Shown: positions 16,126 through 34,927 of the stretch, piece after piece
Position numbering within the stretch: the first letter of the stretch is position 1
Layout: each line of letters begins with the position of its first letter
The notes under the pieces: generated by a model
What the model was told of the DNA's origin: nothing
Database searches by the model: none
What the model saw: the letters and a program-made list of their open reading frames with translations, nothing else
Program-made: the position numbers and the translations under genes
DNA from: Leptothrix discophora
Lineage (GTDB): Bacteria; Pseudomonadota; Gammaproteobacteria; Burkholderiales; Burkholderiaceae_C
Assembly (NCBI RefSeq): GCF_030705305.1
Contig: NZ_JAUZEE010000004.1
Span: 124,001-188,000 of the forward strand
Reading direction: 5' to 3'
DNA length: 64,000 nucleotides

Positions 16126-17823
16126 TTACTGGAAGGTGATGCCGCCGTCGACCACCAGCGTGGTCGGGTAGACCGCCGGCGTGCCCGTGGACACGCTGAG
16201 GTTGGCGCCCGAGGCGACACCATTGACGGTGATGGCCGAGCCGCCGCCATCGCCCTGGAAGTCGATCTGCGAGACCGGCGACAGCGCCAGCGCGCCGGCG
16301 ACGGTCAGGTTGGGCACGGCGCAGTTCTGCGTCACCGCGAACTCGCTCAGGTTCAAGGTGTAGCTGGTCGAGGCGGAGGCCGTGGGCGTCACGACCTTGG
16401 CCAGCTTGATGTTGCAGGGGCCACTGCCCACCGTGTAGAACTTGCCCAGCGTCAGCATGACCAGGAACTTGTTGGTCGCCCCGCTGTTGAACCACTCGGG
16501 GTTCTGGCCGAACTTGAACGACATCGTCGTCTGGTTGCCCAGTTGCAGGCCCGCCGTATCGGCTGTCGGGCTCAGACCGGTCGTGAGCCCGGGTGCCTGC
16601 ACGAAGATGCCCGCGTACAGCGCCGTCGCCGGGGTCGAGGTCTGGTAGTAGTAGTAGAAGCCGCTCGCGGCAGCCGCGACGGTGTCGGTGAACGAGCCGC
16701 CGCTGCCGCAGTTCTGCGGCTGGCCGTCGCAGTTGAAGTTGTCCAGGTTGCTGCCGCTGTAGCCGCCAAACGCACCGCCCTGCACGGTCCGACCGCCTGC
16801 AGCGAAGCCGCTGGAGAAGGTCAGCACGGTGGCCCCGCCACCGCCCACACCACCACCCACGCCGCCCCCTGCCCCACCCGACGCAGCGGTGTACGTCAGC
16901 TCGTCGATGTAGAAGGTCTCGTCCGCGCCCGGCACCACGCCGTAGTCGGCGAACACGCTGACCATGTTGTAGGTGTAGGCCGCGTTGAACGCGGCCGTGC
17001 CAGCGGACGGGTTGCTGAAGTTGAACGTCAGGGTCTCCCAGGCATTGGCCAGGGTGGTGACCACATCGGTCTCGACCGATCGGGTCGGATCGCCCAGGGT
17101 CTCGAACTTCAGCTTGATGGTCTTGCCGGCAGCGGGCGAGTAGACCCGCAGGGTGACCGTCTTTCCGGCCGACAGGTCCGCCGTGGGAATGGCCACGTTC
17201 TGGCCGTTCGAGAACACGGTGACGCCGCCCCAGATCTCGGCGCCAGCGGCCTTGACGAACTTGAAGACCTTGTTCGTGGACAAGGCCGGGTCGTCGGCCT
17301 GCGAGCCGCTGGCCCCGCCGAAGCCGGCGTAGACGATGGCGGCGTTGCCGAAGTCGTTGCAGGGTGCCGCCGTGCAGGTGCCGGTGCTGCCCGACACGAC
17401 CGCGCTGGCGGTGTTGTAGGCCTGGGATGCCGTGGCTGCGACGGTGCCGGCATTGCCTGCCGCGTCGGCGAACGCGCCCGCGGCGACGTCAACGGTGATC
17501 GTGCCGGCGGTGTTGGCCGTCGGGGTGACGACCAGGGTGGCGCTGGTCGGGCTGACCACGGTGAAGGTGCCCTTGGTGCCACCCGCGACGCTGATGTCGT
17601 TCGCGCTGAACGTGCTGCCCACGCCCTCGCTGAAGGTGAAGGTGAAGGTCACGTCGCCGCTGGCACTGGCAGCAGCCACGTTGTCGGTGATCGCCACGGT
17701 CGGCGGCGTGGTGTCGGTGGCGCCGGCTGGCGGCGATGCATCGCCGCCGCCGCAGGCGGCAAGCAGGCAGGCGGCGGCCAGGGTGGAAAGGGCGGACACG
17801 CGGGGATGCACGAGGTTGGACAT
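16126..17823 (-). CDS. Putative surface lipoprotein, Ig-like plus carbohydrate-binding-like modules
   Basis: About 565 residues, not assigned to a known protein. Signal peptide with lipobox LLAACGGGD. Residues ~30-130 form a bacterial Ig-like repeat of the kind using [11 protein letters not shown] and [12 protein letters not shown] beta-sandwich-like region ([31 protein letters not shown]), a Gly-rich hinge ([15 protein letters not shown]) and a second beta-rich domain to the end follow. Such domains often bind polysaccharide. It follows GH81 in the same operon, so it probably holds or presents beta-glucan at the cell surface. An earlier ATG at 17877 overlaps the GH81 stop, but that stretch uses codons rare here (AGA, CGA, CCT), so 17823 is preferred. 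Confidence 0.72.
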
Positions 17824-17873
17824 GGCGAGCTTTCTGAGTCGGTGGAACGGCGGAGGAAAGGGGCGAGGCGTCT

Positions 17874-20153
17874 TCATCGGCTGCGGGCCAAGGTGCGTGG
17901 CAGCACCTGCAGCGACGTGCCGTCGGTGAAGCGCACGGTGATCGGCGCAGCGCCGGCGTTGTAGGCAAGGTGGGTGCGCTGACCGTCGGCGCGCCGGAAG
18001 ACGGCATACAGGGCGGTGTCGGCATGCACGGAGAGATCCGGCGGGCCCATCGCCTTCAGGCTCAGCAGCCAGTGCAGCGCGTGGCTGCGGGTGTCACCCA
18101 GTTCGACCGAACCCCAGCGCTCCCAGGCCTTCAGGCCGGCAACAGGGTCGGCCAGCGCGAGGTACTTGGCGAAGATGTCCTGCCAGATGTCGGGCGGATC
18201 GGCCCGCTTGCCGCGGGCGCGGAAGACCGCCGTGTCGCTTGGCAGCGTGGCGAGACTGCGCGCGACGAAGGCCGGGTCGCGGCCCATGTAGGTCGATGCG
18301 GTGGTCAGGGGCAGCAGGTTGATGCCCTTGATCTGCCTCGGCTCGTCGGTCCACCAGGTGTTGTGCGCGTACTTGGCGCCGAACAGCATGCTGACTTCGA
18401 CGTGCGGGTATTCGGGTGCGAACACGAGGCGATGCAGGTCGAACCAGTAGTGCTCGATCGCCTGCACCTCGCTGGCGTAGAGGTAGATGCCGAGGTCGCG
18501 CAGCGCGGTGTCGCCCGTCACCTCGGCCCACTGGATCAGCGCGGCCCAGGCGTTGACGGCCTCGGAGGACGACTCCTGGTTGTTGCCGCTGGCCCCCAGG
18601 CCGATGCCCGAGGCCCAGGAGTGGCCCTCGTAGACGTCGAAGTTGCGCAGATAGGGGAAGTCGGCCTGACCACGCACGGGATGGGCGATGTCGGCCATCA
18701 GCAGGTCGACCATCCCGCCCCAGCGGTCCTTGGCAGCCCAGGCCGGGTCACGCAGGGCGATGTCGGCCATCGCCCGGATCCAGTAGCCGTAGTGGAAGTG
18801 GTGGTCGTTCATCTGGACGACGCTGAAGTACTCCTCCGGATAGGCCACCAGCGTGCCCAGCGCGCGGTCGTGGTGGAAATAGGTCTTGGCGCTGCTGCCC
18901 GAGAACCAGTCCTCCACGCGGCCCTTGAGCAGCTTGAGGAGTTGCTCGCTTGCCGCCACGTCGCCCTGCTGTTCGGCCACGTCGAGCAGCTTGGTGATGC
19001 GTTGCAGGCCCTTGCCCTGCCAGTACGGGCCGTTGCCGATCTCCAGCATCATCCGGCGCGCATTGCGCAGGTCGGACTTCATGACGTCGCGCAGGTCGGC
19101 TGCGCCCTGCGCGTCGGTCACCGCCGGCCAGAACGGCACGAAGCCGTTGTAGGACGCGCGGGTCGTGAAGGTCGATGCGGCCAGCAGTTTGAGCGGGCCG
19201 CGCACGGTGTTGAAGGCGGGGCCAAGCCGGCCGTCCAGCGTCGCGTTGTCATGCCAGTGGTGCGGGTACAGCGACACCAGCGGGCCAGCATCGGGGCCTT
19301 CCATCGTCCGGCTCGTCAGCGTGAAGGTGGTCGTCACGCGTCCCTGCGCCAGGTCGACCTGCCAGCTCGCCCGGGTGTCGGTGATGAAGGCATAGGCATG
19401 CCGCGCGAAGAGCGCCAGCGTGGCCGGTTCGCGATCGGGCAGCGCGGCGGCGGCGAGGTAGCCCTTGCCCGCTGGCAGGCGGGCGATCCATTCGGTCGGA
19501 CCGACGGATTCCCACCGCACGCCGGTCGGGCCGAACAGCGCATAGCGACGGGCGCCGGCCTGGACGGCCAGGATGCGCGGGTCGTCGGGCACCTCGATGC
19601 GCTCGGCACCGGCTGGCAGGCGCACGCGCACGTCGCCGCGACCGATCTGCATCGAGACGAAGGGGCTGCCGTGCGCCACGGTGTAGCGCAGCTCGTCGGT
19701 GCCGCGCGACATGCCGATGTCGATCGCCCAGTCGCTGGCCTGCGCCAGCTGCGCCGGGCCAGGCTCGAAGGCGACCGGGGCCAGCAGCAGCGGGTCGGCA
19801 TGCGGGTAGTGGATCTCGACGTCGCGGCGTTCGGTGGGCACGACCTGCTTGAGCGGCAGCGCCATTTCCAGACCGGCCGGCGTGGCCTTGACCGACAGCG
19901 GCTGGGCGTAGAGCACCTCGGGCGTGGCACTGAACACCAGCGCCGAGTACCACTGGTTGGTTGGCGCCGCACGGCGCTGCATGTCCGGCGTGCGATGCGC
20001 AGCGGCAGGTGGCCGGGCATCGCCACCCCTGGGCGCCAGGAAGTAGGTCGCAGCACCCACCTTCACGGCCTGCCCATGGGCCGCTGGCAAGGCCACGGTC
20101 GACAGGAAACCGAGCCAGCCCAAGGCCAGGAACCAACCGTTCATTGCACGCAT
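17874..20153 (-). CDS. GH81 endo-1,3-beta-glucanase, secreted
   Basis: 759 residues with a cleavable signal peptide (ALPAAHG/QA). GH81 marks are NQWYSALVF near the N-terminus, [35 protein letters not shown] and [15 protein letters not shown]; the last holds the paired glutamates of the active site. GH81 enzymes cleave internal beta-1,3 bonds of laminarin, curdlan or fungal glucan by inversion. Start 20153 was preferred over 20177 because GAGG lies upstream at good spacing. It has its own LacI-type operator and forms an operon with the downstream lipoprotein. Confidence 0.93.
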
Positions 20154-20198
20154 GCTCGTCCTCGAATCCGGTCCCATCGACCGACGGCCGGATCATAT

Positions 20199-20212
20199 TG
20201 AAAGCGCTTTCA
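20199..20212. promoter_or_regulatory. LacI-type operator at the GH81 promoter
   Basis: TGAAAGCGCTTTCA, inside the longer perfect palindrome TTGAAAGCGCTTTCAA (20198-20213). Identical 14-mers lie before the porin gene and the ABC operon. On the minus strand it starts 3 bp after the predicted -10 box. Confidence 0.88.
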
Positions 20213-20215
20213 AGG

Positions 20216-20245
20216 AACATAGGCAGGTTTACCCGAGTTCGTGAA
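20216..20245 (-). promoter_or_regulatory. Predicted promoter of the GH81 operon
   Basis: Minus strand: TTCACG (20240-20245), 18-bp spacer, TATGTT (20216-20221). Weak boxes, but spacing to the operator equals that at the ABC operon promoter. Confidence 0.5.
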
Positions 20246-20355
20246 CGCGACCCGCGAGGCCGGTGACAGGCCGCCGATCGCATCCGGTCACTGGCCCGGA
20301 GATCCCCATGAACAGGGGCATCCAGCGACCCGGGAAAACACGGGGCGGTCCGACG

Positions 20356-20385
20356 TTGACGTCCCGCGGATGCCTTGGGTATTCT
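20356..20385 (+). promoter_or_regulatory. Predicted promoter of the porin-GH17 operon
   Basis: TTGACG (20356-20361), 18-bp spacer, TATTCT (20380-20385). The LacI palindrome follows immediately. The 359-bp divergent gap between GH81 and the porin thus holds two back-to-back promoters, each with its own operator; nothing else is obvious there. Confidence 0.6.
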
Positions 20386-20386
20386 T

Positions 20387-20400
20387 TGAAAGCGCTTTCA
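20387..20400. promoter_or_regulatory. LacI-type operator at the porin promoter
   Basis: Perfect palindrome TGAAAGCGCTTTCA, identical to the sites at the GH81 and ABC operon promoters, just downstream of the -10 box. Confidence 0.88.
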
Positions 20401-20512
20401 TTCGAGTCAGCGAGCACGACAGGTCACGCTTGCGTGACCTTCGATGCGACGTCTGGCGACTCCCCACCCACGACCTCGCCATCGCTCCGGGCGATGGCGG
20501 CTCAGGAATCCC

Positions 20513-21826
20513 ATGGTCATCGCCCCCTTCCCGCTCCGGACGGTGCGCGCAGCACGCTTCGCCACCTGTGGCGCAGGCCTGCTGCTGAGTGCATCGATCG
20601 CCCAGGCCATCGACCTCGGCCCGTTCACGCTCAGCGGCTTTGCCAAGATCGAGTCCCAGACCGGCAGCAACCAGTGCCCCAGCTGCCAGCGCTTTCCGGA
20701 TGAGGACAAGCAGCGCTTCTGGGCCGACGAGCTGGTGGCCGGCAAGCCCTATGGCCGCCACACGCAGACGACCACGCTGATCCAGCCCTACCTGGGCGGC
20801 AAGTTCGACCTCGGCGGCGGCTACCGGCTCAACGGCCTGCTGAGCCAGCGCTGGCGCGACGGCAAGGTGGACATCCCCGGCTTCTGGTACGAGAAGAACG
20901 TGGCGATCAGCCATGAGGACCTCGGCAGCCTGCGCGTCGGCGCCATGACCACGCGGACCTGGAGCGTGGCCGACTACCCCTACGGCAGCAACGTCGGCGT
21001 GGCCGATGCCTGGGGTTCGGCCGGTGCCGGCTACGGCCTCTTGACGAAGGCGGTGCGCTACACCACGCGGCCCCTTGACGTGTTCGACGGCGACCTGGTC
21101 CTGGAGGCCACCTGGGACCGCGGCAACACCGGCTTCAAGGTCAACAAGCCCCGTTTCCTGGAGCTTTACGGCCAGTACCGGCACGGCGATCTCGTGGTTG
21201 ACGCGATGGCGCAGGACACCCGCAACGGCACGCCGTCCGCCTGGAGCCACGGCCCCTTCACCGGCCTGACGCCGAACGCCGACGACGACGCCAAGCTCGG
21301 CGGGTCGGGCCAGAGCATCGCCATGGCGATGGCCCGCTACCAGGTCGACAGCCAGTGGGAAGTCTCCGGCGGCCTGCGCCGCAACCGCTGGAGCGGCGCC
21401 TATGCCGTGATCACCAGGACCGGTCCGCCGGCCCTGTGGAACAACATGTTCAACGTCGACTGGAACGGCAGCCTCAAGGGCGTGGCCAACCCAGGCTACC
21501 CGGCCACCTCGGTCGACCTGATGGCCGGCCTGCGCTACCGCAGCGGGCCGTGGATCGCCTCGACCGGCCTGGTTCACCTCGGCAAGGCCCGGACCGACAA
21601 CCCCAGCGAGCGCGGTCAGAGCAACTCCGCACTGATCAACGCCTATGGCCTGCAGTACGAGTACGGCGGCGGGCTGGCCGTCTACGGGCTGGCCGGCTGG
21701 GTGCGTTACGGCCGGCTGGGCCTGTCACCGATGTCGATGCCCGGCAACTCGTCCTTCACCAACGTCGATTCGCGCGTCGCGCGCAGCGGCAACTGGGTCG
21801 GTCTCGGGGTGGTCTATGCCCAGTGA
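20513..21826 (+). CDS. Outer-membrane beta-barrel protein, probable glucan-oligosaccharide porin
   Basis: 437 residues. A signal peptide (LLLSASIAQA/IDLG) is followed by short alternating strands rich in aromatic and Gly residues, and the protein ends in a strand with VGLGVVYAQ. A CPSC pair near residue 60 is unusual for a porin. The family is not certain; it resembles general Gram-negative porins in layout. ATG 20513 was chosen for AGGAA upstream and the signal peptide. It lies under a LacI-type operator and upstream of GH17, so it probably lets beta-1,3-gluco-oligosaccharides through the outer membrane. No TonB-dependent SusC-like receptor is present. Confidence 0.72.
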   Translation: MVIAPFPLRTVRAARFATCGAGLLLSASIAQAIDLGPFTLSGFAKIESQTGSNQCPSCQRFPDEDKQRFWADELVAGKPYGRHTQTTTLIQPYLGGKFDLGGGYRLNGLLSQRWRDGKVDIPGFWYEKNVAISHEDLGSLRVGAMTTRTWSVADYPYGSNVGVADAWGSAGAGYGLLTKAVRYTTRPLDVFDGDLVLEATWDRGNTGFKVNKPRFLELYGQYRHGDLVVDAMAQDTRNGTPSAWSHGPFTGLTPNADDDAKLGGSGQSIAMAMARYQVDSQWEVSGGLRRNRWSGAYAVITRTGPPALWNNMFNVDWNGSLKGVANPGYPATSVDLMAGLRYRSGPWIASTGLVHLGKARTDNPSERGQSNSALINAYGLQYEYGGGLAVYGLAGWVRYGRLGLSPMSMPGNSSFTNVDSRVARSGNWVGLGVVYAQ

Positions 21827-21878
21827 CGCCCACCCGATGCACGCCTGCGCCCAACCGATCCCGAACGGAAGCCTCTCC

Positions 21879-23681
21879 ATGACGTTCCACCTGATGGCCC
21901 GCCGTGCGCGGGCGCTGTCCCTGGGCCTGGTTGCGGCCTTGCTGGTCGTGGCCTGCGGCGGCGGCGGCACGGTGCCCTCGACCGGCGTGTCGGTGCGCCC
22001 GCTGAGCAGCGAGTTCACCGCGCGCAAGGCGGTCGCCTACTCGCCCTACCGCACCGCCGTCAGCGACGCCGAACGCGCCAACGAGACGATCACGCCGGCG
22101 ATGGTCAAGCAGGACCTCGAGCTGCTGATCGCCGGCGGCTTCAAGCTGATCCGCCTGTTCGACAGCTCCGACAAGGTCGCCCGGCTGACGCTGGAGGTGA
22201 TCCGCGACCACGCGCTCGACATGAAGGTGATGCTCGGCATCTATGTGCAGAACGGTGACGCGGCCTACAACGCGGCCGAGATCGCACGCGGCATCGCGCT
22301 GGCCAACACGCACCGCAACACGGTGCTCGCGGTGAGCGTGGGAAACGAGACGATGGTGAGCTGGTCGTTCAACAAGTTCACGTCGGCGCAGATCGCGGCC
22401 TACCTGAAGACGGTGCGGGACGCCATCACCCAGCCCGTCACGACCGATGACAACTGGGCCTACTTCGCCAATGCCGCCGGCGAGCCGAACGACCCGAAGG
22501 CGGTGCTCGACACGGTCGACTTCGTGTCCATGCACACCTACCCGCTGCTCGACACGATTCCGCCGGCCGTGGCGTCATGGGACTGGGAGCAGCAATCGGC
22601 GGCCGCTGGCATGCCGCGTGCCATCGCGATGATGGACGCGGCCATCGCCTCGGCGAAGAACGAGCATGACAAGGTGCGCGCCCACCTCGACAGCCGTGGC
22701 CGCACCGACCTGCCGATCGTCATCGGCGAGACGGGCTGGAAGGCATCGCCCTCGGCCGGCGAGTTCTTCCGCGCCCACCCGGTCAACCAGAAGATGTACT
22801 TCGATCGCCTCAATACCTGGCGCGACCGCGCGCGTGCCAGTGGCACCGGGCCGCGCGCCATCGTGTACTTCGAGGCCTTCGACGAACCCTGGAAGGGCCG
22901 CGACGACAAGTGGGGCCTGTTCAACGTGGCGCGCCAGGCACGCTGCCAGGTTCAGGACCTCTATGCCCAGGTGCCCGGCGTGGTGCCGGAGCCGGGAAGC
23001 TGCGCGGCCGCCGATGCGGTCTCCGCACCGTCGGTGGTGCAGTCGACCATCGGCCAGTCGCGCTACGTGGTCTATGCCAACGCCAGCATCGCCGACGAGG
23101 CCCGTGCCGGTGCGCTGCAATGGATCGGCTTCGGTGGCGACAGCGGCAATGGCGGCGCCGACACCTCGTTCTCGGGCGAGGTTCCGGCCGGCACGGATGC
23201 CGATGCGCCCTACCGCGAGATCGCGCCGGCACCGGCCAGCTACGGCTGGGGGCACTTCGCCTTGTCCAGCTCGGCGGCCGGTTCGTCCGAGGTGGTCGAC
23301 CTCAGCCTGTTCGAGGCCACCGGCCGGCTGAACTTCAAGCTGCGGTCGACCTACCCCGGCAAGCTCGAGGTCGGCTTCATGACCGGCAGCGGCGCCACCG
23401 CCTACGACGTCTACCTGACCCTCAGCAACACCAATGCCGACGGCTATGGCTACGTCAACGACGGCCAGTGGCACACGGTGTCGATCCCGATCGCCGCCAT
23501 CAGGGCAGCCGGCGCGCCGGCCTTCGGCACCTCGGCACCGACCTCGCGCTTCGACCTGACGAAGGTGACGCACCCGTTCTCGATTGGCGACCGATACGGC
23601 AACACGGGCAACGCCGGCGGCGCGGCGGTCGGCAGTCGGGTCAAGGTCTACGTCGACGAGGTCTACTGGTCGCGCAACTGA
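21879..23681 (+). CDS. GH17 glucan endo-1,3-beta-glucosidase lipoprotein with C-terminal beta-sandwich
   Basis: 600 residues. Lipobox LLVVAC with Cys26. Residues ~45-370 are a GH17 barrel: VAYSPYR, KLIRLFDSS, SVGNETM with acid/base Glu157, SMHTYPLLDT, VIGETGWKAS with nucleophile Glu284, and YFEAFDEPWK. The last ~200 residues look like a galactose-binding-type beta-sandwich (GALQWIGFGG, VDLSLFEATGRLNFKL, VYVDEVYW), probably glucan-binding. GH17 enzymes cut or transfer beta-1,3-glucans. It starts 52 bp after the porin stop, in one operon. The lipid anchor suggests action at the outer membrane on chains released by GH81. Confidence 0.9.
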   Translation: MTFHLMARRARALSLGLVAALLVVACGGGGTVPSTGVSVRPLSSEFTARKAVAYSPYRTAVSDAERANETITPAMVKQDLELLIAGGFKLIRLFDSSDKVARLTLEVIRDHALDMKVMLGIYVQNGDAAYNAAEIARGIALANTHRNTVLAVSVGNETMVSWSFNKFTSAQIAAYLKTVRDAITQPVTTDDNWAYFANAAGEPNDPKAVLDTVDFVSMHTYPLLDTIPPAVASWDWEQQSAAAGMPRAIAMMDAAIASAKNEHDKVRAHLDSRGRTDLPIVIGETGWKASPSAGEFFRAHPVNQKMYFDRLNTWRDRARASGTGPRAIVYFEAFDEPWKGRDDKWGLFNVARQARCQVQDLYAQVPGVVPEPGSCAAADAVSAPSVVQSTIGQSRYVVYANASIADEARAGALQWIGFGGDSGNGGADTSFSGEVPAGTDADAPYREIAPAPASYGWGHFALSSSAAGSSEVVDLSLFEATGRLNFKLRSTYPGKLEVGFMTGSGATAYDVYLTLSNTNADGYGYVNDGQWHTVSIPIAAIRAAGAPAFGTSAPTSRFDLTKVTHPFSIGDRYGNTGNAGGAAVGSRVKVYVDEVYWSRN

Positions 23682-23684
23682 TGG

Positions 23685-23756
23685 CGAGGGCGGTGCAAGC
23701 CACCGCCCTCGAAGCCCTCATCCCGCAACAGAAAGGGACCCGCGAGGGTCCCTTTC
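23685..23756. terminator. Two hairpins between convergent GH17 and ABC operons
   Basis: First hairpin: CGAGGGCGGTG (23685-23695) pairs with CACCGCCCTCG (23701-23711). Second: GAAAGGGACCC (23731-23741) pairs with GGGTCCCTTTC (23746-23756), followed by TTC. Likely a bidirectional terminator for the two converging operons. Confidence 0.75.
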
Positions 23757-23860
23757 TTCATCGGGTCAGGGATCGTTGAATCGATCCCGTGTCCTGGCAT
23801 CCGCCGCCCGCCCTGGGCGGCCCAGGCGGCCCACGCGGCCCAGCCGGCAGCACCCGAGCG

Positions 23861-24925
<1,065 letters not shown>

Positions 24926-24926
24926 G

Positions 24927-26312
24927 TCAGTCTCCGGTCGGAATGCCCAGGGCGCTCGCGCGCAGGGCCTGTTGGTGTTGCAGGAAGCGGCGATACCAGT
25001 GCGCGCTGGCCTTGGGCGTGCGGACCTGCGTCGTGTAGTCCACATGCACGATGCCGAAACGTTTCGCGTAGCCCGACGCCCACTCGAAGTTGTCCATCAG
25101 GCTCCACACGAAGTAGCCGTTGACCGGCACGCCCTGGCGCATGGCTTCTCCGACCGCAGCGATGTGACCGGCCAGGTACTCGGTCCGGTCATGGTCGGCG
25201 ACGCGACCGTCGATGCACGCGTCCGGGAAGGCGCCGCCGTTCTCGGTGATCGTCAGCGGTGGCACCGGGTAGTCGCGGGCCAGGCGCAGCAGCAGCTCGG
25301 TCAGGCTGGGCGCATGGACCTCCCAGCCCATGTCGGTCAGCGGCAGGCCGCTGCTGCCCGGTACCCAGGGTGCCCCAGCGCTGGCGACGCTGCGGGTGTA
25401 GTAGTTGATGCCGAGAAAGTCGATCGGCACGGAGATGGCGTCGAGATCACCCGGCTCGATGACCGGGGCCTGCTCGCCCAGGTCATCGAGGATGTCGACC
25501 GGGTAGCGGCCATGGAACAGCGGGTCCATGTACCAGCGCAGCAGACGGCCATCCTCCAGCAACGCACGCGCGCGGTCGGCGGCGCTGTCGGTGGCTGGCA
25601 CGGTGGGCGACAGGTTGAGCACGATGCCCATCGGCACGGAGCAGCCGGCCGCCCGCATGGCGCGTACCGCCAGCCCGTGGCTGAGCAGCAGGTGATGCGC
25701 GACCTGCGCGGCGATCGCGCGGTCGCGGATGCCCGGCGCAAAGATGCCGGCCTCGTGGCCGAGCACGGCCATGACCCAGGGCTCGTTGTGGGTCGTGATG
25801 GCCGCCACGCGCCGGCCGTAGCGGGCCGCGATGCCCAGCGCGTAGTCGACGAAACGCTGCACCGTGGCCCGGTCGGCCCAGCCGCCGGTGGCCTGCAAGG
25901 CCTCGGGCAGGTCCCAGTGGTTGAGGGTCAGGTGCGGCTGGATGCCGCGCGCGTTCAGGCCGTCGATCAGGCGGTCGTAGAAGGCCAGGCCAGCCTCGTT
26001 CCAGTCGCCCGCGCCGGTCGGTCGCACACGCGGCCAGGCGATCGAGAAGCGGTAGGCGTCCACGCCCAGGCTGGCGATGAGGTCGAGGTCGGCGTCGAGG
26101 CGGTGGTAGTGCTCGCAGGCCACCGTGCCGTCGCTGCCATCGGCGATGACGCCGGGCCGGCGGCAGAAGGTGTCCCAGATCGACGGGCCCTTGCCGTCCA
26201 CGTCGGCCGCGCCCTCGATCTGGAAGGCGCTGGTGGCGACGCCCCAGCGGAAGTCGGCTGGAAAGCGATGCGTCGGCAGCGGAACGTGCGATGCGAACTC
26301 GGTGGTGAACAT
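24927..26312 (-). CDS. GH1 beta-glucosidase, cytoplasmic
   Basis: 461 residues, no signal peptide. GH1 signatures: FRWGVATSAFQIEG near the N-terminus, LNHWDLP, acid/base Glu177 in THNEPW, LGINYYTR, nucleophile Glu357 in TITENGG, and WSLMDNFEWASGY. It should split imported laminari-oligosaccharides (or cellobiose) to glucose. It sits between the permease and ATPase genes, so it is made together with the transporter. Length and motifs are full. Confidence 0.93.
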   Translation of the reverse strand: MFTTEFASHVPLPTHRFPADFRWGVATSAFQIEGAADVDGKGPSIWDTFCRRPGVIADGSDGTVACEHYHRLDADLDLIASLGVDAYRFSIAWPRVRPTGAGDWNEAGLAFYDRLIDGLNARGIQPHLTLNHWDLPEALQATGGWADRATVQRFVDYALGIAARYGRRVAAITTHNEPWVMAVLGHEAGIFAPGIRDRAIAAQVAHHLLLSHGLAVRAMRAAGCSVPMGIVLNLSPTVPATDSAADRARALLEDGRLLRWYMDPLFHGRYPVDILDDLGEQAPVIEPGDLDAISVPIDFLGINYYTRSVASAGAPWVPGSSGLPLTDMGWEVHAPSLTELLLRLARDYPVPPLTITENGGAFPDACIDGRVADHDRTEYLAGHIAAVGEAMRQGVPVNGYFVWSLMDNFEWASGYAKRFGIVHVDYTTQVRTPKASAHWYRRFLQHQQALRASALGIPTGD

Positions 26313-26386
26313 GGGGTGTCGGCCCGTGCGGGCCAGGGTTCAGGTTGGGGACATGGCCCGGCGTCGGTGCCGTGCCGCCGGCTGCG

Positions 26387-27217
26387 TCACTTGACGGCGC
26401 CGGTGGTCAGGCCGGAGATCAGCTGCCGCGAGGACAGCGCGAACAGCACCAGCAGCGGCAGCGTGGCGATGGCCGAACCCGCCATCAGCGCGCCCCACTC
26501 GGTGTTGACGGGGCTCTGCATGCTGCGCAGCGCCAGCGGCAGCGTGTACATCTCGGGGCTGCGCATCACGATCAGCGGACCGATGAAGTTGTTCCAGCTG
26601 GCGATGAAGGTGATCAGCCCCAGCGTGCCCAGCGCAGGCCCCAGCAGCGGCAGCACGATGCGCCAGTAGATGCCGAACTCGCCGCAGCCGTCCATGCGCG
26701 CGGCCTCGACCAGTTCGCGGGGAATGGACGAGCTGACGAACTGCCGCATCAGGAAGATGCCGAAGGCGCTGGCCGCACCCGGGATGTAGAGCGCGCGCGG
26801 CTGGTCGATCCAGCCGAAGACGTCCATGATCATGAAGGTCGGGATCATCCCGAGGAAGGACGGCAGCAGCATGGTGGCCATCACCAGCGTGAACAGCGGC
26901 CGCTTGAAGCGGAACTCGAACAGCGCGAAGGCATAGCCGCCCATCGAGCAGAACAGCAGCGTCAGCGCGGTGCTGGCGAGCGCCACGTAGAGGCTCAGGC
27001 CGAGGTTGCGCCAGAACGGGATGCGGCCGGTCAGGATGTCGATGTTCTGTTGCAGCCAATCGCCGAAGAACAGCGGCGGAGGCAGGCTGAAGATCTCGGT
27101 GCGCGAGTGGCTCGCGAACACGAACATGAAGTAGAACGGCGCGAGCATGATCAGCGCGCCGATGCCCACCAGCACGTAGGCGGCCCAGGGTGCCATGCGG
27201 CCTGAGGAGATCGTCAT
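26387..27217 (-). CDS. Sugar ABC transporter permease (MalG type)
   Basis: About 276 residues with six membrane segments. The coupling motif EAARMDGCGEFGIYWRIVLPLLGP is the EAA loop of CUT1 permeases. Start uncertain: ATG 27265 is closer to the preceding stop, but its extra 16 codons are rich in CCT and GTT, unlike this genome, so 27217 is preferred. Partner of the permease encoded upstream. Confidence 0.88.
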   Translation of the reverse strand: MTISSGRMAPWAAYVLVGIGALIMLAPFYFMFVFASHSRTEIFSLPPPLFFGDWLQQNIDILTGRIPFWRNLGLSLYVALASTALTLLFCSMGGYAFALFEFRFKRPLFTLVMATMLLPSFLGMIPTFMIMDVFGWIDQPRALYIPGAASAFGIFLMRQFVSSSIPRELVEAARMDGCGEFGIYWRIVLPLLGPALGTLGLITFIASWNNFIGPLIVMRSPEMYTLPLALRSMQSPVNTEWGALMAGSAIATLPLLVLFALSSRQLISGLTTGAVK

Positions 27218-27275
27218 CGGGAGATCCGGCGAAGGAACAGGAACAGGGGCAGGCTGCGGCGCCATGCGCGCCGCG

Positions 27276-28211
27276 TCAGGCGGAAGGACCGCGCGGCTTG
27301 AAGGCGCGGTTGGTCAGCCAGGTCAGCACCGCGACGAAGGCGAACAGCAGCCAGGACATCGCGCTGGCCGCGCCAAAGTCGTTGAACTCGAAGGCGGTGC
27401 GGTACATGTACATCGCCGTGGTCATGCCGCTCTGGTCGGTGCCGCCGCGAGCGCCCACGAGGATGAAGGGTTCCTCGAACAGCTGGAGTCCGCCGATCAC
27501 GCTGAGGGTCACGCCGAAATAGATCATCGGCCGCAGGCTGGGCAGCGTGATGAACCAGAACTGCTGGAAGCGTCCGGCACCGTCCATCGTCGCGGCCTCG
27601 TAGAGGTCCTTCGGGATGGTCTGCAGGGCCGCCAGGTAGAGCACGACGTTGAAGCCCACGTAGCGCCAGAAGACCACCAGGGAGATCGCGGGCTTGATGT
27701 TCTCGGCCTTGTTCAGCCAGTCCACCGGCTGGCCACCGGTGAGCCAGTCCAGCCCCGGCACCTTGGCCAGTTCGGCCAGGCACAGGTTGATCAGGCCGTA
27801 GTCGGTCGAGAACAGGGTCGAGAACATCATCGAGATCGCGACCGTCGACGTGATGTAGGGCAAGAAGTAGGCGCCGACCACGCCGTTGCGAAGCTGCTTG
27901 AAGCTCGTGTGGATGAAGTAGGCCAGCGGGATGGCGACCAGGTGCTGTGGCACGCCCGAGGCCAGTGCCAGCCAGCCCGTGTTGGAAAGCGACTTCCAGA
28001 ACCACTCGTCGTGGAGCGCGAAGGCGAAGTTCTCCAGGCCGACGAACTTCATCGACGCCAGGCCGGCGGTGGGCTCCCAGGTCTGGAAGGCAAGGTAGAG
28101 CGAGAACGACAGCGGAAAGACCCCGAACACCGCGAACAGGATCAGGAAGGGGCTGATGAACACGTACGGGGCCCACGCGGGGGGCAGTCGCAGTCGTCGT
28201 CGGGGGGTCAT
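27276..28211 (-). CDS. Sugar ABC transporter permease (MalF type)
   Basis: 311 residues, six membrane segments starting at PYVFISPFLILFAVFG, with the EAA loop DLYEAATMDGAGRFQQFWFITLPSL. Start 28211 has GAGG at good spacing; an in-frame TTG at 28283 is less likely. It forms the membrane channel with the MalG-type protein. About 115 bp separate it from the binding-protein stop. Confidence 0.88.
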   Translation of the reverse strand: MTPRRRLRLPPAWAPYVFISPFLILFAVFGVFPLSFSLYLAFQTWEPTAGLASMKFVGLENFAFALHDEWFWKSLSNTGWLALASGVPQHLVAIPLAYFIHTSFKQLRNGVVGAYFLPYITSTVAISMMFSTLFSTDYGLINLCLAELAKVPGLDWLTGGQPVDWLNKAENIKPAISLVVFWRYVGFNVVLYLAALQTIPKDLYEAATMDGAGRFQQFWFITLPSLRPMIYFGVTLSVIGGLQLFEEPFILVGARGGTDQSGMTTAMYMYRTAFEFNDFGAASAMSWLLFAFVAVLTWLTNRAFKPRGPSA

Positions 28212-28325
28212 CGCGGGCCTCGCTGGGCGTATCGGTGCCTGCACCGGCGGCACGGGATCGGGCCGGTGCATGGTTCGGCGCAAGGCTCGCCGCTCAGGTG
28301 GCGGCGAGCGTCGAGTCGAGGGGGA

Positions 28326-29630
28326 TCAGCGGCGGGCGCGGCGCTCCAGCAGCTTGCGGGCGTCGGCCAGCGCGGCCTTGATGTCCTTGCCCTGGTCCAG
28401 CACCTTGTCCATCTCGGTGTTGACGATCTCCTCGGCGATCGGGTCGAACTTGTTGACGTCCAGCGCGTTGATCCGGGTGGTGGCCTCGCGCCAGATCACG
28501 CGGGCCTTCTGGCCGCCGAGAAACTCGATGGGCTGGTCGAAGAAGGCATCCTTGTGGGTCTCGACCAGGGCCGGGAAGGCATCCTGCGACTTGAACGCGG
28601 CCTGCTGGATCGCGGGGTTCAGCGTCATCATCTGCACGAACTCCCAGGCCAGCGCCTTGTTCGCGGCACTGGCACCCTTGGGCAGGGCGTAGAAGCTGCC
28701 GCCGTAGGACGCCCAGGCGCCCTCGGGCAACTGGGCGGCGCGCCATTGGCCCTTGGTGTTCGGTGCCAGCCAGTTGCTGAGATGGCCGGCCAGCCACGCG
28801 CCCATCATCTGCGTGCCGATGGTGCCGCGCTTGAAGCCCTCGGACCATTCGTTGGACCAGGCGCCGATCTTGCCGTCGAGCTTCTGGTCTCGCACCGACT
28901 TGGCCAGTTCGAAGGCGCGCACGAAGCGCGGCGACTCGACCAGGATGTTGCCCTTGTCATCGAAGTACAGACCCTCGCCCGCCTTGACGTTGGCGCGGAT
29001 CGCGATGTCCTTGATATCGCGGGCATGCGCGAGCAGGTAGGCGCCGGTGGCGGCCTTGAGCTTGACGCCCGAGGCGATGTAGCTGTCCCAGGACCTGGTG
29101 AGATCGGCCTCGGTCAGGCCCGCCTTCTGCAGCAGGTCGCTGCGATAGAGCAGCGTGCCCGGACCGAGGTCGGCCGGTGCGGCGACCACCGCGCCGTTGT
29201 CGGCGGTGGCCTGCTGGTAGGCATAGGACACGAAGCGGCCCTTGCTGGCACCGATGTTGTAGGGCGCCCTGGACAGGTCCTCGAGACCGCCGCCCTCGGC
29301 GAAGCGACCGACGAAGCCGAACTCGAGCGCCATCACGTCGGGCAGGTTCGACGAGGTCGACAAGGCCGTGGTCATCGCGGTGTGGTGGTCGCTGAACTGG
29401 CGGCTGACGACCTTGATCTCGACGTTGGGATGCTTCTGCTTCCACACCGGAATCGCGGCCTTGACGATTTCGTCGAGCGCCGGAAACGCCGCCACCGTGA
29501 GCGTCTGGGTCTGTGCCAGGGCCGGCATGGCACCGGTCGCCAACAGGCTCATCAGGCCCAGCAGCGGCAGACGAGCCAGGACAAGGCGACGCGGCATGGA
29601 AGCGGCGTTGGAACGATCGGTGCGTGACAT
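28326..29630 (-). CDS. Sugar ABC transporter periplasmic binding protein
   Basis: 434 residues, family 1 extracellular solute-binding protein. Signal peptide ends ATGAMPALA/QTQ. Two-lobe fold with TLTVAAFPALDEIVKAAIPVW, NLPDVMALEFGFVGRF, WASYGGSFYALPKGA and the C-terminal DQGKDIKAALADARKLLE. AGGAG six bases before the ATG. First gene of the transporter operon, under the LacI operator. The ligand is inferred as beta-1,3-gluco-oligosaccharides because GH81, GH17 and GH1 share the regulon. Confidence 0.9.
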   Translation of the reverse strand: MSRTDRSNAASMPRRLVLARLPLLGLMSLLATGAMPALAQTQTLTVAAFPALDEIVKAAIPVWKQKHPNVEIKVVSRQFSDHHTAMTTALSTSSNLPDVMALEFGFVGRFAEGGGLEDLSRAPYNIGASKGRFVSYAYQQATADNGAVVAAPADLGPGTLLYRSDLLQKAGLTEADLTRSWDSYIASGVKLKAATGAYLLAHARDIKDIAIRANVKAGEGLYFDDKGNILVESPRFVRAFELAKSVRDQKLDGKIGAWSNEWSEGFKRGTIGTQMMGAWLAGHLSNWLAPNTKGQWRAAQLPEGAWASYGGSFYALPKGASAANKALAWEFVQMMTLNPAIQQAAFKSQDAFPALVETHKDAFFDQPIEFLGGQKARVIWREATTRINALDVNKFDPIAEEIVNTEMDKVLDQGKDIKAALADARKLLERRARR

Positions 29631-29716
29631 GGCTGTCTCCTGCGAGGCGGCGTGCTCGCCGCTGGATGAAGGGATGTGCGGGTGCGAAGAAAGGCCAGGC
29701 CAGCGGCCTTGACCAC

Positions 29717-29746
29717 GCTTTCACGGTCACCGTGAAAGCGCTTTCA
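29717..29746. promoter_or_regulatory. Compound LacI operator at the ABC operon promoter
   Basis: Two overlapping palindromes: a 23-bp one with perfect 11-bp arms around C29728 (arm GCTTTCACGGT), and the 14-bp regulon palindrome TGAAAGCGCTTTCA at 29733-29746. They share the half-site 29733-29739. On the minus strand the 14-mer begins 3 bp past the -10 box. Confidence 0.85.
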
Positions 29747-29831: not shown

Positions 29832-30896
29832 TCAGCCGGTCAGACGGCGTGTCGACTCGCGCACGATCAGGCGAGGCGGCGCCAGCCTTTGCGTCGGCTT
29901 GACGCCCGAAAGCAGCGACAGCATGGCCGCTGCGGCGGTCTGCCCCATCTCGTAGCCGGCGTGGTGCACGGTCGTCAGAGGCGGCGTTGCGAACTGCGCC
30001 ACGGCCAGGTTGTCGTAGCCGACCAGCGAGATGTCGTCGGGCACCCGCAGGCCTCGGCGATACAGCGCCAGCAGCGCGCCCAGGGCCATCTGGTCATTGG
30101 CCGAGAAGATGGCCGTGAAGCGCTGGCGCCCCTGCAGCAGCCGGTCGACCGCAAGCTGTCCGCCGGCCTCCTGGTAGTCGCCCTGCTGGATCAGCGCGGG
30201 GTCGGGCGCGATGCCCGCGTCCTGCAGCGCACCCAGGTGGCCACGCTTGCGTGCGTCGGCATCGGGATGCTCTGCATCACCCGCGATGAAGGCGATGCGC
30301 CGATGGCCGAGGTCCAGCAGATGCTGGGTTGCCAGTCGCGCACCGGCCTCGTCATCGCTGCCCAGCGAGCACAGCCCCGGCGCCTTGAGGTTGCGCCCGG
30401 TCACCACCAGCGGCAAGGCGCGCGCCTGGGCCCGCAGCGCCGTATCGCTCAGTCGCCCGGTCAGCACGATGATGCCGTCGACCCGCCTGGCCTTGAGCAG
30501 TTCGATGCAGCGCAGCTCCTCCTCGACGTTCCAGTGGCCGCTGACGAACAGGGGGCTGTAGCCAGCCCGGTCGAGCTCGTCCTCGATCCCGCGCATGGCC
30601 ACGCCGTAGAACGGGCTGTCGATCGACAGCGCCACGACACCGATGCTCAGCGTGCGTCCACCGGCGAGACCGCGTGCCACCGGGTTGGGCACGAAGCCGA
30701 GCGCGGCAATCGCCTCATCGACGGCCTGCTTCTTGGCGGCACTGACCACGGCGGTGCCATTGAGGATGCGCGAGACCGTGCTGGGAGAAACGCCCGCGGC
30801 CTGGGCAACCATCTCCAGGGTGACAGGGCCGGCATGGAGGGTCGATCGGCTGCGAGGTCGGGACGCTGCCGTCTTGGCAGCCGACTTGGTGGTCAT
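29832..30896 (-). CDS. LacI family repressor of the glucan regulon
   Basis: 354 residues. N-terminal LacI helix-turn-helix and hinge (VTLEMVAQAAGVSPSTVSRILNG, NPVARGLAGGRT) preceded by a short basic tail, then a periplasmic-binding-protein-like sugar domain (FYGVAMRGIEDELDRAGY, LGHRRIAFIAGD, SANDQMALGALLAL, DISLVGYDN). It lies directly upstream of the transporter operon and in the same direction. TGAAAGCGCTTTCA, found three times in this locus, is a typical LacI/GalR target with central CG, so this protein is the best candidate to bind it and release it on an incoming glucan sugar. No copy of the palindrome was seen before lacI itself. Confidence 0.9.
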   Translation of the reverse strand: MTTKSAAKTAASRPRSRSTLHAGPVTLEMVAQAAGVSPSTVSRILNGTAVVSAAKKQAVDEAIAALGFVPNPVARGLAGGRTLSIGVVALSIDSPFYGVAMRGIEDELDRAGYSPLFVSGHWNVEEELRCIELLKARRVDGIIVLTGRLSDTALRAQARALPLVVTGRNLKAPGLCSLGSDDEAGARLATQHLLDLGHRRIAFIAGDAEHPDADARKRGHLGALQDAGIAPDPALIQQGDYQEAGGQLAVDRLLQGRQRFTAIFSANDQMALGALLALYRRGLRVPDDISLVGYDNLAVAQFATPPLTTVHHAGYEMGQTAAAAMLSLLSGVKPTQRLAPPRLIVRESTRRLTG

Positions 30897-31345
30897 GGTG
30901 AAGCGCCTTGCGGATGGTCGACGTGCAGTCCTGCCGGGAACGAGCCCGGAGGAAGCGGACGGTTGTCCGGACATTTCACCAGAAGGCGCACGGGACGCGA
31001 CGGGCCAGCGGGTGTGTTGCCAGCCGTCGAGGTCGGGCGTGGGCCTTGCCAGGAAGCCCACCACCACCCAGAAGGCCAACGCCCCGCGCCCGGAACAGCG
31101 GCTCCGGAGGAATGCCGCGCCTGAAGGGAAAAAGCACGGCAGGTCATCGACTGGCAGAGGGCACATTCGCGCCTGCGCGGGGCAACCTCCACGAGGCAAC
31201 TCACTGTCAATCAACGGTTCTTTGAAGGAGCGCCACCTTTGGGTTCTGTGTTTACCCTGGGCGTCAACGGCGCCCTATCCAGACGAACGGGCGTGCGAGG
31301 CGAGACGTCAAGTGGCGCCAGTCGTCAGCCTGGACAGGCCGAGGT

Positions 31346-31681
31346 TCACGCGCTCGGCATGCCACGGCACGCCAGCAAATCGGCGCATCGCCGACCGAGG
31401 CCTTGCAGGCCTTCGAGGGCCAGGTCCGGAGGTTCAACGGTGTGTCGGGGGAAGGCATGGACCTGTTCATCACGCGCGACGCAAAGCCTGGAGAACTGAT
31501 CCCTGGACACGACGGTCGTGCCCATCGCCTTGACCAGATCGTCCACCGAGCGCGCCGAGATGCCCTGGATGCAGGCCCCCCTGGATGGGCACCGTCCGCA
31601 GAGGACGTTTTCCCACTGGGGCTTGCAGCACAGCGGGGGACATGAGCCTTGGGTCCAGGCCCGGGAAGGAAAAAGCCCCAT
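31346..31681 (-). pseudogene. Decayed IS256-family (mutator) transposase fragment
   Basis: Within a gap of about 800 bp (30897-31707) with no intact gene, the minus-strand frame at about 31453-31576 encodes QGISARSVDDLVKAMG, then VSRDQFSRLC and DEQV. This resembles the IS256-type segment QGVSTRSVDDLVKALG-SQVSRLCEEID. Flanking sequence has drifted and lacks the full DDE core, and no terminal inverted repeats were found. The rest of the gap (30897-31340) shows nothing recognisable. Assigned by one conserved motif, so the family call is moderate. Confidence 0.55.
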
Positions 31682-31707: not shown

Positions 31708-31782
31708 TGGTGGGCGGTGCAGGGTTCGAACCTGCGACCCCTGCCGTGTGAAGGCAGTGCTCTACCGCTGAGCTAACCGCCC
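31708..31782 (-). tRNA. tRNA-Val (anticodon CAC)
   Basis: Read on the minus strand: acceptor GGGCGGT, D-arm TAGCTCAGCGGTAGAGC, anticodon stem CTGCC with loop TTCACAC (anticodon CAC, reads GTG), T-arm GCAGGTTCGAACCCTGC, and encoded CCA at 31708-31710. All stems pair. A CAC Val tRNA suits a genome where GTG is a frequent Val codon. Confidence 0.93.
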
Positions 31783-32650: not shown

Positions 32651-32989
32651 TCAGTGATTCTCGCGGGCGTGGTTGATCGTGTAGCGCGGGATCTCCACGA
32701 CCAGGTCGGCGCGGGCGACGATGGCCTGGCAACTCAGGCGCGAGTCGGCTTCGAGGCCCCAGGCGCGGTCGAGCAGGTCTTCCTCGGTCTCGTCCATCTC
32801 GTTGAGCGAGGCATAGCCCTGGCGCACGATGACGTGGCAGGTGGTGCAGGCGCAGCTCATGTCGCAGGCATGCTCGATCTCGATGCCGTTCTCGAGCAGG
32901 GCCTCGCAGACGGAGGTGCCGGGCGCGGCGTCGATGGTCTTGCCGTCGGGACAGAGCGCGGCGTGGGGCAGGATCTGGATGGTGGGCAT
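32651..32989 (-). CDS. fdx: ISC-type 2Fe-2S ferredoxin
   Basis: 112 residues. Cluster ligands are in HACDMSCACTTCHV and a fourth downstream Cys in SRLSCQAIV. The DDE-like acidic stretch MDETEEDLLDRAWGL is typical of adrenodoxin-type ferredoxins of the ISC system. It supplies electrons for cluster assembly on IscU. Ten bp after hscA. Confidence 0.93.
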   Translation of the reverse strand: MPTIQILPHAALCPDGKTIDAAPGTSVCEALLENGIEIEHACDMSCACTTCHVIVRQGYASLNEMDETEEDLLDRAWGLEADSRLSCQAIVARADLVVEIPRYTINHARENH

Positions 32990-32999
32990 CGTGGGTTAC

Positions 33000-34877
<1,878 letters not shown>

Positions 34878-34927
34878 GACTGGGTCGGGTCGGGTTCGTG
34901 AGGTCGGGCGAGCCGATCAAGGGGGCG

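What the first reader, a model, noticed from the sequence alone, without database searches (positions are those of the whole stretch)
20199..29746. One 14-bp LacI palindrome controls three promoters of a beta-1,3-glucan locus with fixed geometry
TGAAAGCGCTTTCA occurs at 20199-20212, 20387-20400 and 29733-29746, each 1-3 bp downstream of a predicted -10 box, and all three predicted promoters have 18-bp spacers. GH81, porin-GH17 and the ABC-GH1 operons are thus tied to the adjacent LacI gene. Direct sequence reading; the repressor assignment is inferred from position and the known LacI operator style.
Basis: partly seen in the sequence, partly recalled or inferred. Interest (0 to 1): 0.72.

Follow-up and report, generated by a model that had tools for sequence, protein, structure and literature searches.

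The report
LacI-type switch for beta-glucan genes
A betaproteobacterium appears to use one short palindromic DNA switch, probably recognised by a neighbouring LacI-type repressor, to turn on together the genes that break down, import and digest beta-1,3-glucan; relatives keep the same switch, and a second conserved box beside it hints at an unidentified second regulator.

Summary
The 14-mer TGAAAGCGCTTTCA is real at all three places and occurs nowhere else in the 4.65-Mb genome, even with one mismatch. Comparison supports the LacI assignment. In 399 genomes sampled from the family, 54 have both a LacI relative (at least 59% identity) and the 14-mer, 2 only the LacI, 13 only the 14-mer, 330 neither. 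Of 30 top LacI loci chosen by protein alone (the window's included), 26 have the exact 14-mer within 350 bp downstream of lacI. The GH81, porin-GH17 and ABC/GH1 targets recur, and relatives add GH16, GH30, glucokinase, TonB-receptor and symporter genes.

"Fixed geometry" is only partly right. SBP/GH1 and porin promoters usually keep a -35/-10 just upstream of the operator, with best-scoring spacers of 16-18. In most GH81 promoters the conserved -10-like hexamer lies just downstream of the operator.

A second element around GGGWAAAC recurs at set distances in many of these promoters; its binder is unknown. The operator resembles the CcpA cre. This is a predicted LacI-family regulon: a new member of a known kind, with one open lead. 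No binding or expression was tested.

The parts
20199..20212 (.). operator at the GH81 promoter
   Evidence: exact 14-mer; recurs upstream of GH81 in relatives
20387..20400 (.). operator at the porin-GH17 promoter
   Evidence: exact 14-mer; recurs upstream of the porin-like gene in relatives
29733..29746 (.). operator at the SBP-ABC-GH1 promoter, between lacI and the SBP gene
   Evidence: exact 14-mer; same place in 26 of 30 top LacI loci, the window included
29832..30896 (-). lacI, putative repressor (354 aa from the ATG at 30896; start inferred)
   Evidence: PF00356 plus Peripla_BP_3 and Peripla_BP_1 on the longer ORF; start read
17874..20177 (-). GH81 glucanase (start more likely at 20153, inferred from a signal-peptide-like N-terminus)
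   Evidence: PF17652, E 7.6e-51
16126..17877 (-). Ig-like (Big_12) protein whose ORF overlaps the GH81 stop by 4 bp; probably in the GH81 operon (inferred)
   Evidence: PF19078; coordinates
   Evidence: no Pfam match, no NCBIfam match near a cut-off; homologues beside GH81 and GH17 in relatives
21645..23681 (+). GH17 glucanase ORF (its real start probably lies after 21826)
   Evidence: PF00332, E 3.9e-7
23861..25045 (-). ABC sugar ATPase, UgpC/MalK type
   Evidence: PF00005 and TOBE_2; NF008653 above its cut-off
24927..26312 (-). GH1 beta-glucosidase
   Evidence: PF00232, E 4.4e-149
26387..27265 (-). ABC permease
   Evidence: PF00528
27276..28283 (-). ABC permease
   Evidence: PF00528
28326..29630 (-). 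ABC solute-binding protein (SBP)
   Evidence: PF01547
29750..29779 (-). predicted SBP promoter TTGACA-18-TACAGT
20356..20385 (+). predicted porin promoter TTGACG-18-TATTCT
20192..20197 (-). likely GH81 -10 hexamer TATGAT, 1 bp downstream of the operator
   Evidence: sequence; position conserved in relatives
20227..20234 (-). second element GGGTAAAC, 22 bp upstream of the GH81 operator
20332..20339 (+). second element GGGAAAAC, 55 bp upstream of the porin operator
29716..29723 (-). extra half-site TGAAAGCG, 23 bp from the SBP operator; with the operator half it can form a 12-bp hairpin in the leader
   Evidence: sequence; 3-mismatch match; fold

Best explanation
A local LacI-family repressor regulon for beta-1,3-glucan use. 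The LacI protein (29832-30896) most likely binds the palindrome TGAAAGCGCTTTCA as a dimer. At the SBP and porin promoters the site starts 1-3 bp after the -10, over the expected start of transcription. At GH81 it more likely sits between the -35 region and the -10. In each case it would block RNA polymerase. An oligosaccharide released from the glucan and imported by the ABC transporter would release the repressor and switch on GH81, porin-GH17 and ABC-GH1 together. Shown here: the sites, their restriction to this locus in this genome, and their association with this LacI and these genes across relatives. Inferred: binding, repression (rather than activation), the effector and co-induction. 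The substrate is inferred from the GH81, GH17 and GH1 families.
For: Only 3 sites in the genome at up to 1 mismatch, all in this locus. In 399 genomes of the family: 54 both, 2 LacI only, 13 14-mer only, 330 neither, for LacI at 59% identity or more (lists copied by hand; related genomes are not independent). At the looser E of 1e-80: 56, 15, 11, 317. In its genus G000 and G635 have both, G454, G559, G702 and G760 neither. 8 of 8 named or MAG beta-proteobacterial relatives at 66-70% identity carry the exact 14-mer. 26 of 30 top LacI loci have it within 350 bp downstream of lacI; best match in 2250 shuffles was 3 mismatches. Two 14-mers lie between divergent porin and GH81 genes in 10 of 48 loci besides the window. 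Other targets fit glucan use: GH16, GH30, glucokinase, TonB receptor, sodium symporter.
Against: No binding or expression data. The genome has 11 other LacI-type genes over the Pfam cut-off, and cross-binding was not excluded; the HTH of 8 of the 11 was read and none shares the helix SPSTVSR. 13 genomes have the 14-mer without a LacI of at least 59% identity; 2 of them (G434, G647) have one at 54-55%. Of the 30 loci, L128, L129 (only 131 bases available) and L134 have no match closer than 5 mismatches downstream of lacI, and L118 has 1 mismatch. LacI relatives L158 and L159 with the same recognition helix lack the exact 14-mer and have relaxed sites nearby. No operator lies upstream of the window's lacI, although 72% of LacI-family regulators are reported as autoregulated (PMC4052901, passages).
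Confidence: 0.88

Rival explanations
1. The sites belong to another LacI-family protein of the genome, and the neighbouring LacI is only a passenger.
For: 12 LacI-type genes are over the Pfam cut-off, the window's included. The site is a generic LacI/CcpA-like palindrome.
Against: Co-occurrence with this LacI, its place beside lacI, and sites confined to this locus. 8 of the 11 paralogues read have other recognition helices.
Confidence: 0.05
2. The LacI protein activates at some of these promoters (as Cra does; recalled) rather than only repressing.
For: The GH81 promoter has a weak -35 and a differently placed operator.
Against: All three sites overlap or touch the core promoter; in GH81 the site would fill the spacer, which suggests repression.
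Confidence: 0.07
3. The GH81 promoter is the one the first reader named (TTCACG-18-TATGTT), with the operator just downstream of the -10, as at the other two.
For: In the window it scores 8.2 against 5.9 for the downstream one.
Against: It is not kept: mean upstream score over 12 GH81 promoters 2.1 (shuffles 0.38, sd 0.67, largest of 100 2.2), downstream 6.2 (shuffles 1.3, sd 0.59, largest 2.8). 7 of 12 have TATGAT or TATCAT at one position.
Confidence: 0.2

Closest known systems
LacI-family local sugar regulons (Ravcheev et al. 2014, PMC4052901; section 9 and passages seen)
   Same: Even palindrome with central CG, sites in promoter regions, local catabolic regulon beside the regulator gene.
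   Different: The words glucan and laminarin do not occur in its main text and Comamonadaceae is not named. Its BglR passage concerns Caulobacterales. Supplements were not searched. No operator is seen upstream of this lacI.
CcpA and its cre site (PMC5171806, one passage seen)
   Same: That paper gives TGAAAGCGCTTTCA as resembling the cre operator of B. subtilis CcpA.
   Different: Local, locus-bound regulator in a betaproteobacterium; scores 173 bits against the ccpA model cut-off of 442.
GlyR3 of Clostridium thermocellum (PMC5483248, listing and start of abstract seen)
   Same: A LacI-family regulator of a cluster that includes licA; laminaribiose as inducer is recalled, not from a call.
   Different: Firmicute; genes and sites were not compared here.

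Membership tests
LacI family of transcription factors | N-terminal LacI-type HTH | tested here: met
   PF00356, 50.1 bits against a cut-off of 27
LacI family of transcription factors | periplasmic-binding-protein-like effector domain | tested here: met
   PF13377 E 3.7e-38, PF00532 E 3.1e-31
LacI family of transcription factors | even palindromic operator with central CG | tested here: met
   TGAAAGCGCTTTCA; criterion from PMC4052901 section 9
LacI family of transcription factors | effector-controlled DNA binding | not testable with these tools
   needs gel shift or footprint with candidate sugars
CcpA (TIGR01481) | score over the curated equivalog cut-off | tested here: not met
   173.1 bits against 442.35
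Named NCBIfam LacI-family groups (CytR, PurR, RbsR, GalR, GntR and others) | score over the curated cut-off | tested here: not met
   none of the 24 families listed reaches its cut-off; best CytR 214.1 against 436

The most novel reading that the evidence does not exclude
The regulon is under double control: the LacI operator plus a second conserved element (core GGGWWA, often GGGWAAAC) bound by an unidentified, probably activating, protein. It sits at set distances: about 55 bp upstream of the operator in porin promoters, about 40 in SBP/GH1 promoters (mostly reversed), about 22 in GH81 promoters. Given the promoter types, this puts it near -45 or -55 from the expected transcription start. 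Together with the operator inside the GH81 spacer, this would be a distinct promoter logic for glucan use in these betaproteobacteria.
Probability: 0.45. Interest if true: 0.6.

Novelty: new member of a known kind. Interest (0 to 1): 0.4.

Why it matters
It gives a testable regulator, operator and target set for beta-1,3-glucan use in freshwater and soil betaproteobacteria, where nine searches of the held paper library listed no described LacI regulon of this kind that I could see from titles and abstract starts. The near-invariant site makes the regulon easy to map in other genomes, and the second element could lead to a regulator that links glucan use to other signals.

Tried and rejected
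Looping between the two divergent operators: 12 spacings of 70-188 bp show no clear helical phase (Rayleigh p 0.05-0.17 by assumed repeat): inconclusive, not claimed.

Full palindrome CTAGGG-N4-CCCTAG for the second element: TAGGGNNNNCCCTA is not enriched in 14 genomes (17 sites against 25 for the reversed control): dropped.

Second element as a genome-wide signal: TAGGGWAAAC 51 against 25 control in 12 genomes; GGGWAAACN16-22TTGAC 23 against 10 control in 15 genomes, 5 of the 23 being lam porin promoters. Weak, uneven, no binder identified. By contrast TWACCCTN2-5TTGACA gave 10 hits in 15 genomes, all 10 beside this lacI, with 2 control hits (positions compared; the genomes were picked partly because some were known to have it).

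Second element upstream of lacI: present in the window at 31250 but in only 4 of 29 lacI upstream regions, the window included: not conserved.

tRNA-linked island: lacI lies about 0.8 kb from a tRNA-Val gene, but no copy of the tRNA 3' end was found elsewhere in the window and G+C is even.

Paper search for the second element's letters gave 238 papers, 15 listed, none on bacterial promoters by title.

Limits of the counts: 96 distinct exact sites; 37 were left unassigned and 59 used (33 SBP/GH1, 14 porin, 12 GH81). One porin row (L144 17430) probably belongs to GH81 and is turned the wrong way. Exact sites were collected because exact, so operator invariance rests only. In one search, 28 promoter orientations from 25 of the 37 unassigned sites were used (12 left out) and orientations were chosen by eye from ORFs. 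Its pattern was widened after I had seen, so it is not a blind test: the patterns give 10 of 28 (wide; 0 of 1000 shuffles) and 4 of 28 (narrow; 3 of 1000 shuffles).
Full report
Observation. The 14-mer TGAAAGCGCTTTCA is at 20199-20212, 20387-20400 and 29733-29746. These are the only places in the 4.65-Mb genome at up to one mismatch; the reversed control has none.

Genes. Pfam confirms GH81 (17874-20177), GH17 (21645-23681), ABC ATPase, GH1, two permeases, SBP, and a LacI-family regulator whose ORF runs 29832-31214; the likely start is the ATG at 30896. The porin-like protein has no Pfam match and no NCBIfam match near a cut-off, so that name is not confirmed. A Big_12 protein gene overlaps the end of GH81. 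Relatives of the LacI are betaproteobacteria such as Ideonella, Roseateles and Rubrivivax by record title.

Is it this LacI? Three lines. First, 8 of 8 relatives at 66-70% identity carry the exact 14-mer in the fetched locus, and none of the 34 more distant ones does. Second, in 399 genomes sampled from the family, LacI at 59% identity or more and the exact 14-mer go together: 54 both, 2 LacI only, 13 14-mer only, 330 neither. At the looser E of 1e-80 it is 56, 15, 11 and 317 (from, copied by hand). I saw no reversed-control hit in the printed rows. In the sample of the order, 20 of 399 genomes have the 14-mer and 3 a control hit. Related genomes are not independent; within the genus 2 of 6 genomes have both and 4 have neither. 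Third, 30 top LacI loci chosen by protein (the window's own included): 26 have the exact 14-mer within 350 bp downstream of lacI, 1 has one mismatch, 3 have nothing closer than 5 mismatches, one of them with only 131 bases to look at. In 2250 shuffles the best match had 3 mismatches.

Targets in relatives. In 48 loci searched with the window's proteins the same blocks recur: lacI, 14-mer, SBP-permeases-GH1-ATPase (or GH1 alone), and porin, 14-mer, 14-mer, GH81. The divergent pair with two 14-mers is in 10 of the 48 besides the window. Ten proteins next to other 14-mers were scanned: TonB receptor, GH30, glucokinase (two), GH16, sodium symporter and two Big_12 proteins matched; two had no match. 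In the sister species G635 the 14-mer after lacI precedes GH16.

Promoter geometry. SBP/GH1 (33): mean score 9.4, shuffles 0.5; best-scoring spacers 17 (17 times), 18 (12), 16 (4). Porin (14): 8.1 against 1.0; spacers 18 (7), 17 (4), 16 (3). The fixed 18 is therefore not general. GH81 (12): upstream 2.1 against 0.38 (sd 0.67), downstream 6.2 against 1.3 (sd 0.59). In 7 of 12 TATGAT or TATCAT ends 21 bases from the operator's first base, so the operator lies in the spacer. In the window itself the upstream reading scores higher (8.2 against 5.9), so this rests on conservation and needs 5'-end mapping.

Second element. Within 60 bp upstream of the operator, patterns around GGGWAAAC, GGGTWA and their complements occur in 11 of 14 porin, 10 of 12 GH81 and 22 of 33 SBP/GH1 promoters; shuffle means are 0.6, 0.8 and 2.1 (wide pattern). 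Positions are narrow: -56 to -51 in all 11 porin cases, -23 to -19 in 10 of 10 GH81 promoters with the element, -42 to -37 in 20 of 22 SBP/GH1 cases, 19 of those reversed. In 28 further promoter orientations 10 have it by the same wide pattern (0 of 1000 shuffles), 4 by the narrow one (3 of 1000), and 22 by a looser pattern chosen after seeing the sequences. In 6394 stretches of 60 bp from 20 of the loci the wide pattern is in 1.7% and the looser in 3.5%. The window has it at GH81 and porin but not at SBP. Genome-wide scans gave weak and uneven excess, no support for a full palindrome, and no binder.

Comparison. The site is an ordinary LacI-family operator: even palindrome, central CG (PMC4052901 section 9), and described as resembling the CcpA cre in PMC5171806 (one passage). 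More distant LacI relatives have relaxed versions such as TGAAAACGATTTCA nearby. No NCBIfam named group reaches its cut-off. Nine paper searches listed nothing that described this regulon by title or abstract start; most listed papers were not opened, and subscription papers are missing from the library.

Verdict. A well-supported prediction of a LacI repressor regulon for beta-1,3-glucan use, a new member of a known kind. The promoter-geometry claim needs correction at GH81. The second element is the part most worth following.

Noticed in passing
window 29715-29741: Downstream of the SBP start the operator half and an extra half-site form a 12-bp hairpin at the expected 5' end of the mRNA (fold z -2.68, 2 of 200 shuffles as stable). 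A half-site 23 bp away could also aid cooperative binding.
   Followed up: partly
window 31708-31782: tRNA-Val (CAC) gene between lacI and an exonuclease gene; the locus is in 2 of 6 genomes of the genus, but no repeat of the tRNA end was found in the window.
   Followed up: partly
window 31250-31257 and 31607-31614: Two more GGGWAAAC copies upstream of lacI; the window has 4 against 0.63 expected, but the upstream position is not conserved.
   Followed up: yes
L189, L193, L194, L205: GGGWAAAC next to a different LacI-like palindrome (GACAACGTTGTC) before genes that look by eye like a GH1 and outer-membrane receptor genes: possibly the same element in another sugar regulon.
   Followed up: no
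L202 and L207: GGGWAAAC upstream of genes that look by eye like glucose-6-phosphate dehydrogenase (L202) and bchC (L207, own genome) (names recalled, no family search).
   Followed up: no
window 32829-34901: The ORF that matches Pfam NAD-GH lies opposite an Hsp70 gene (33000-34877, minus) and is probably spurious.
   Followed up: no
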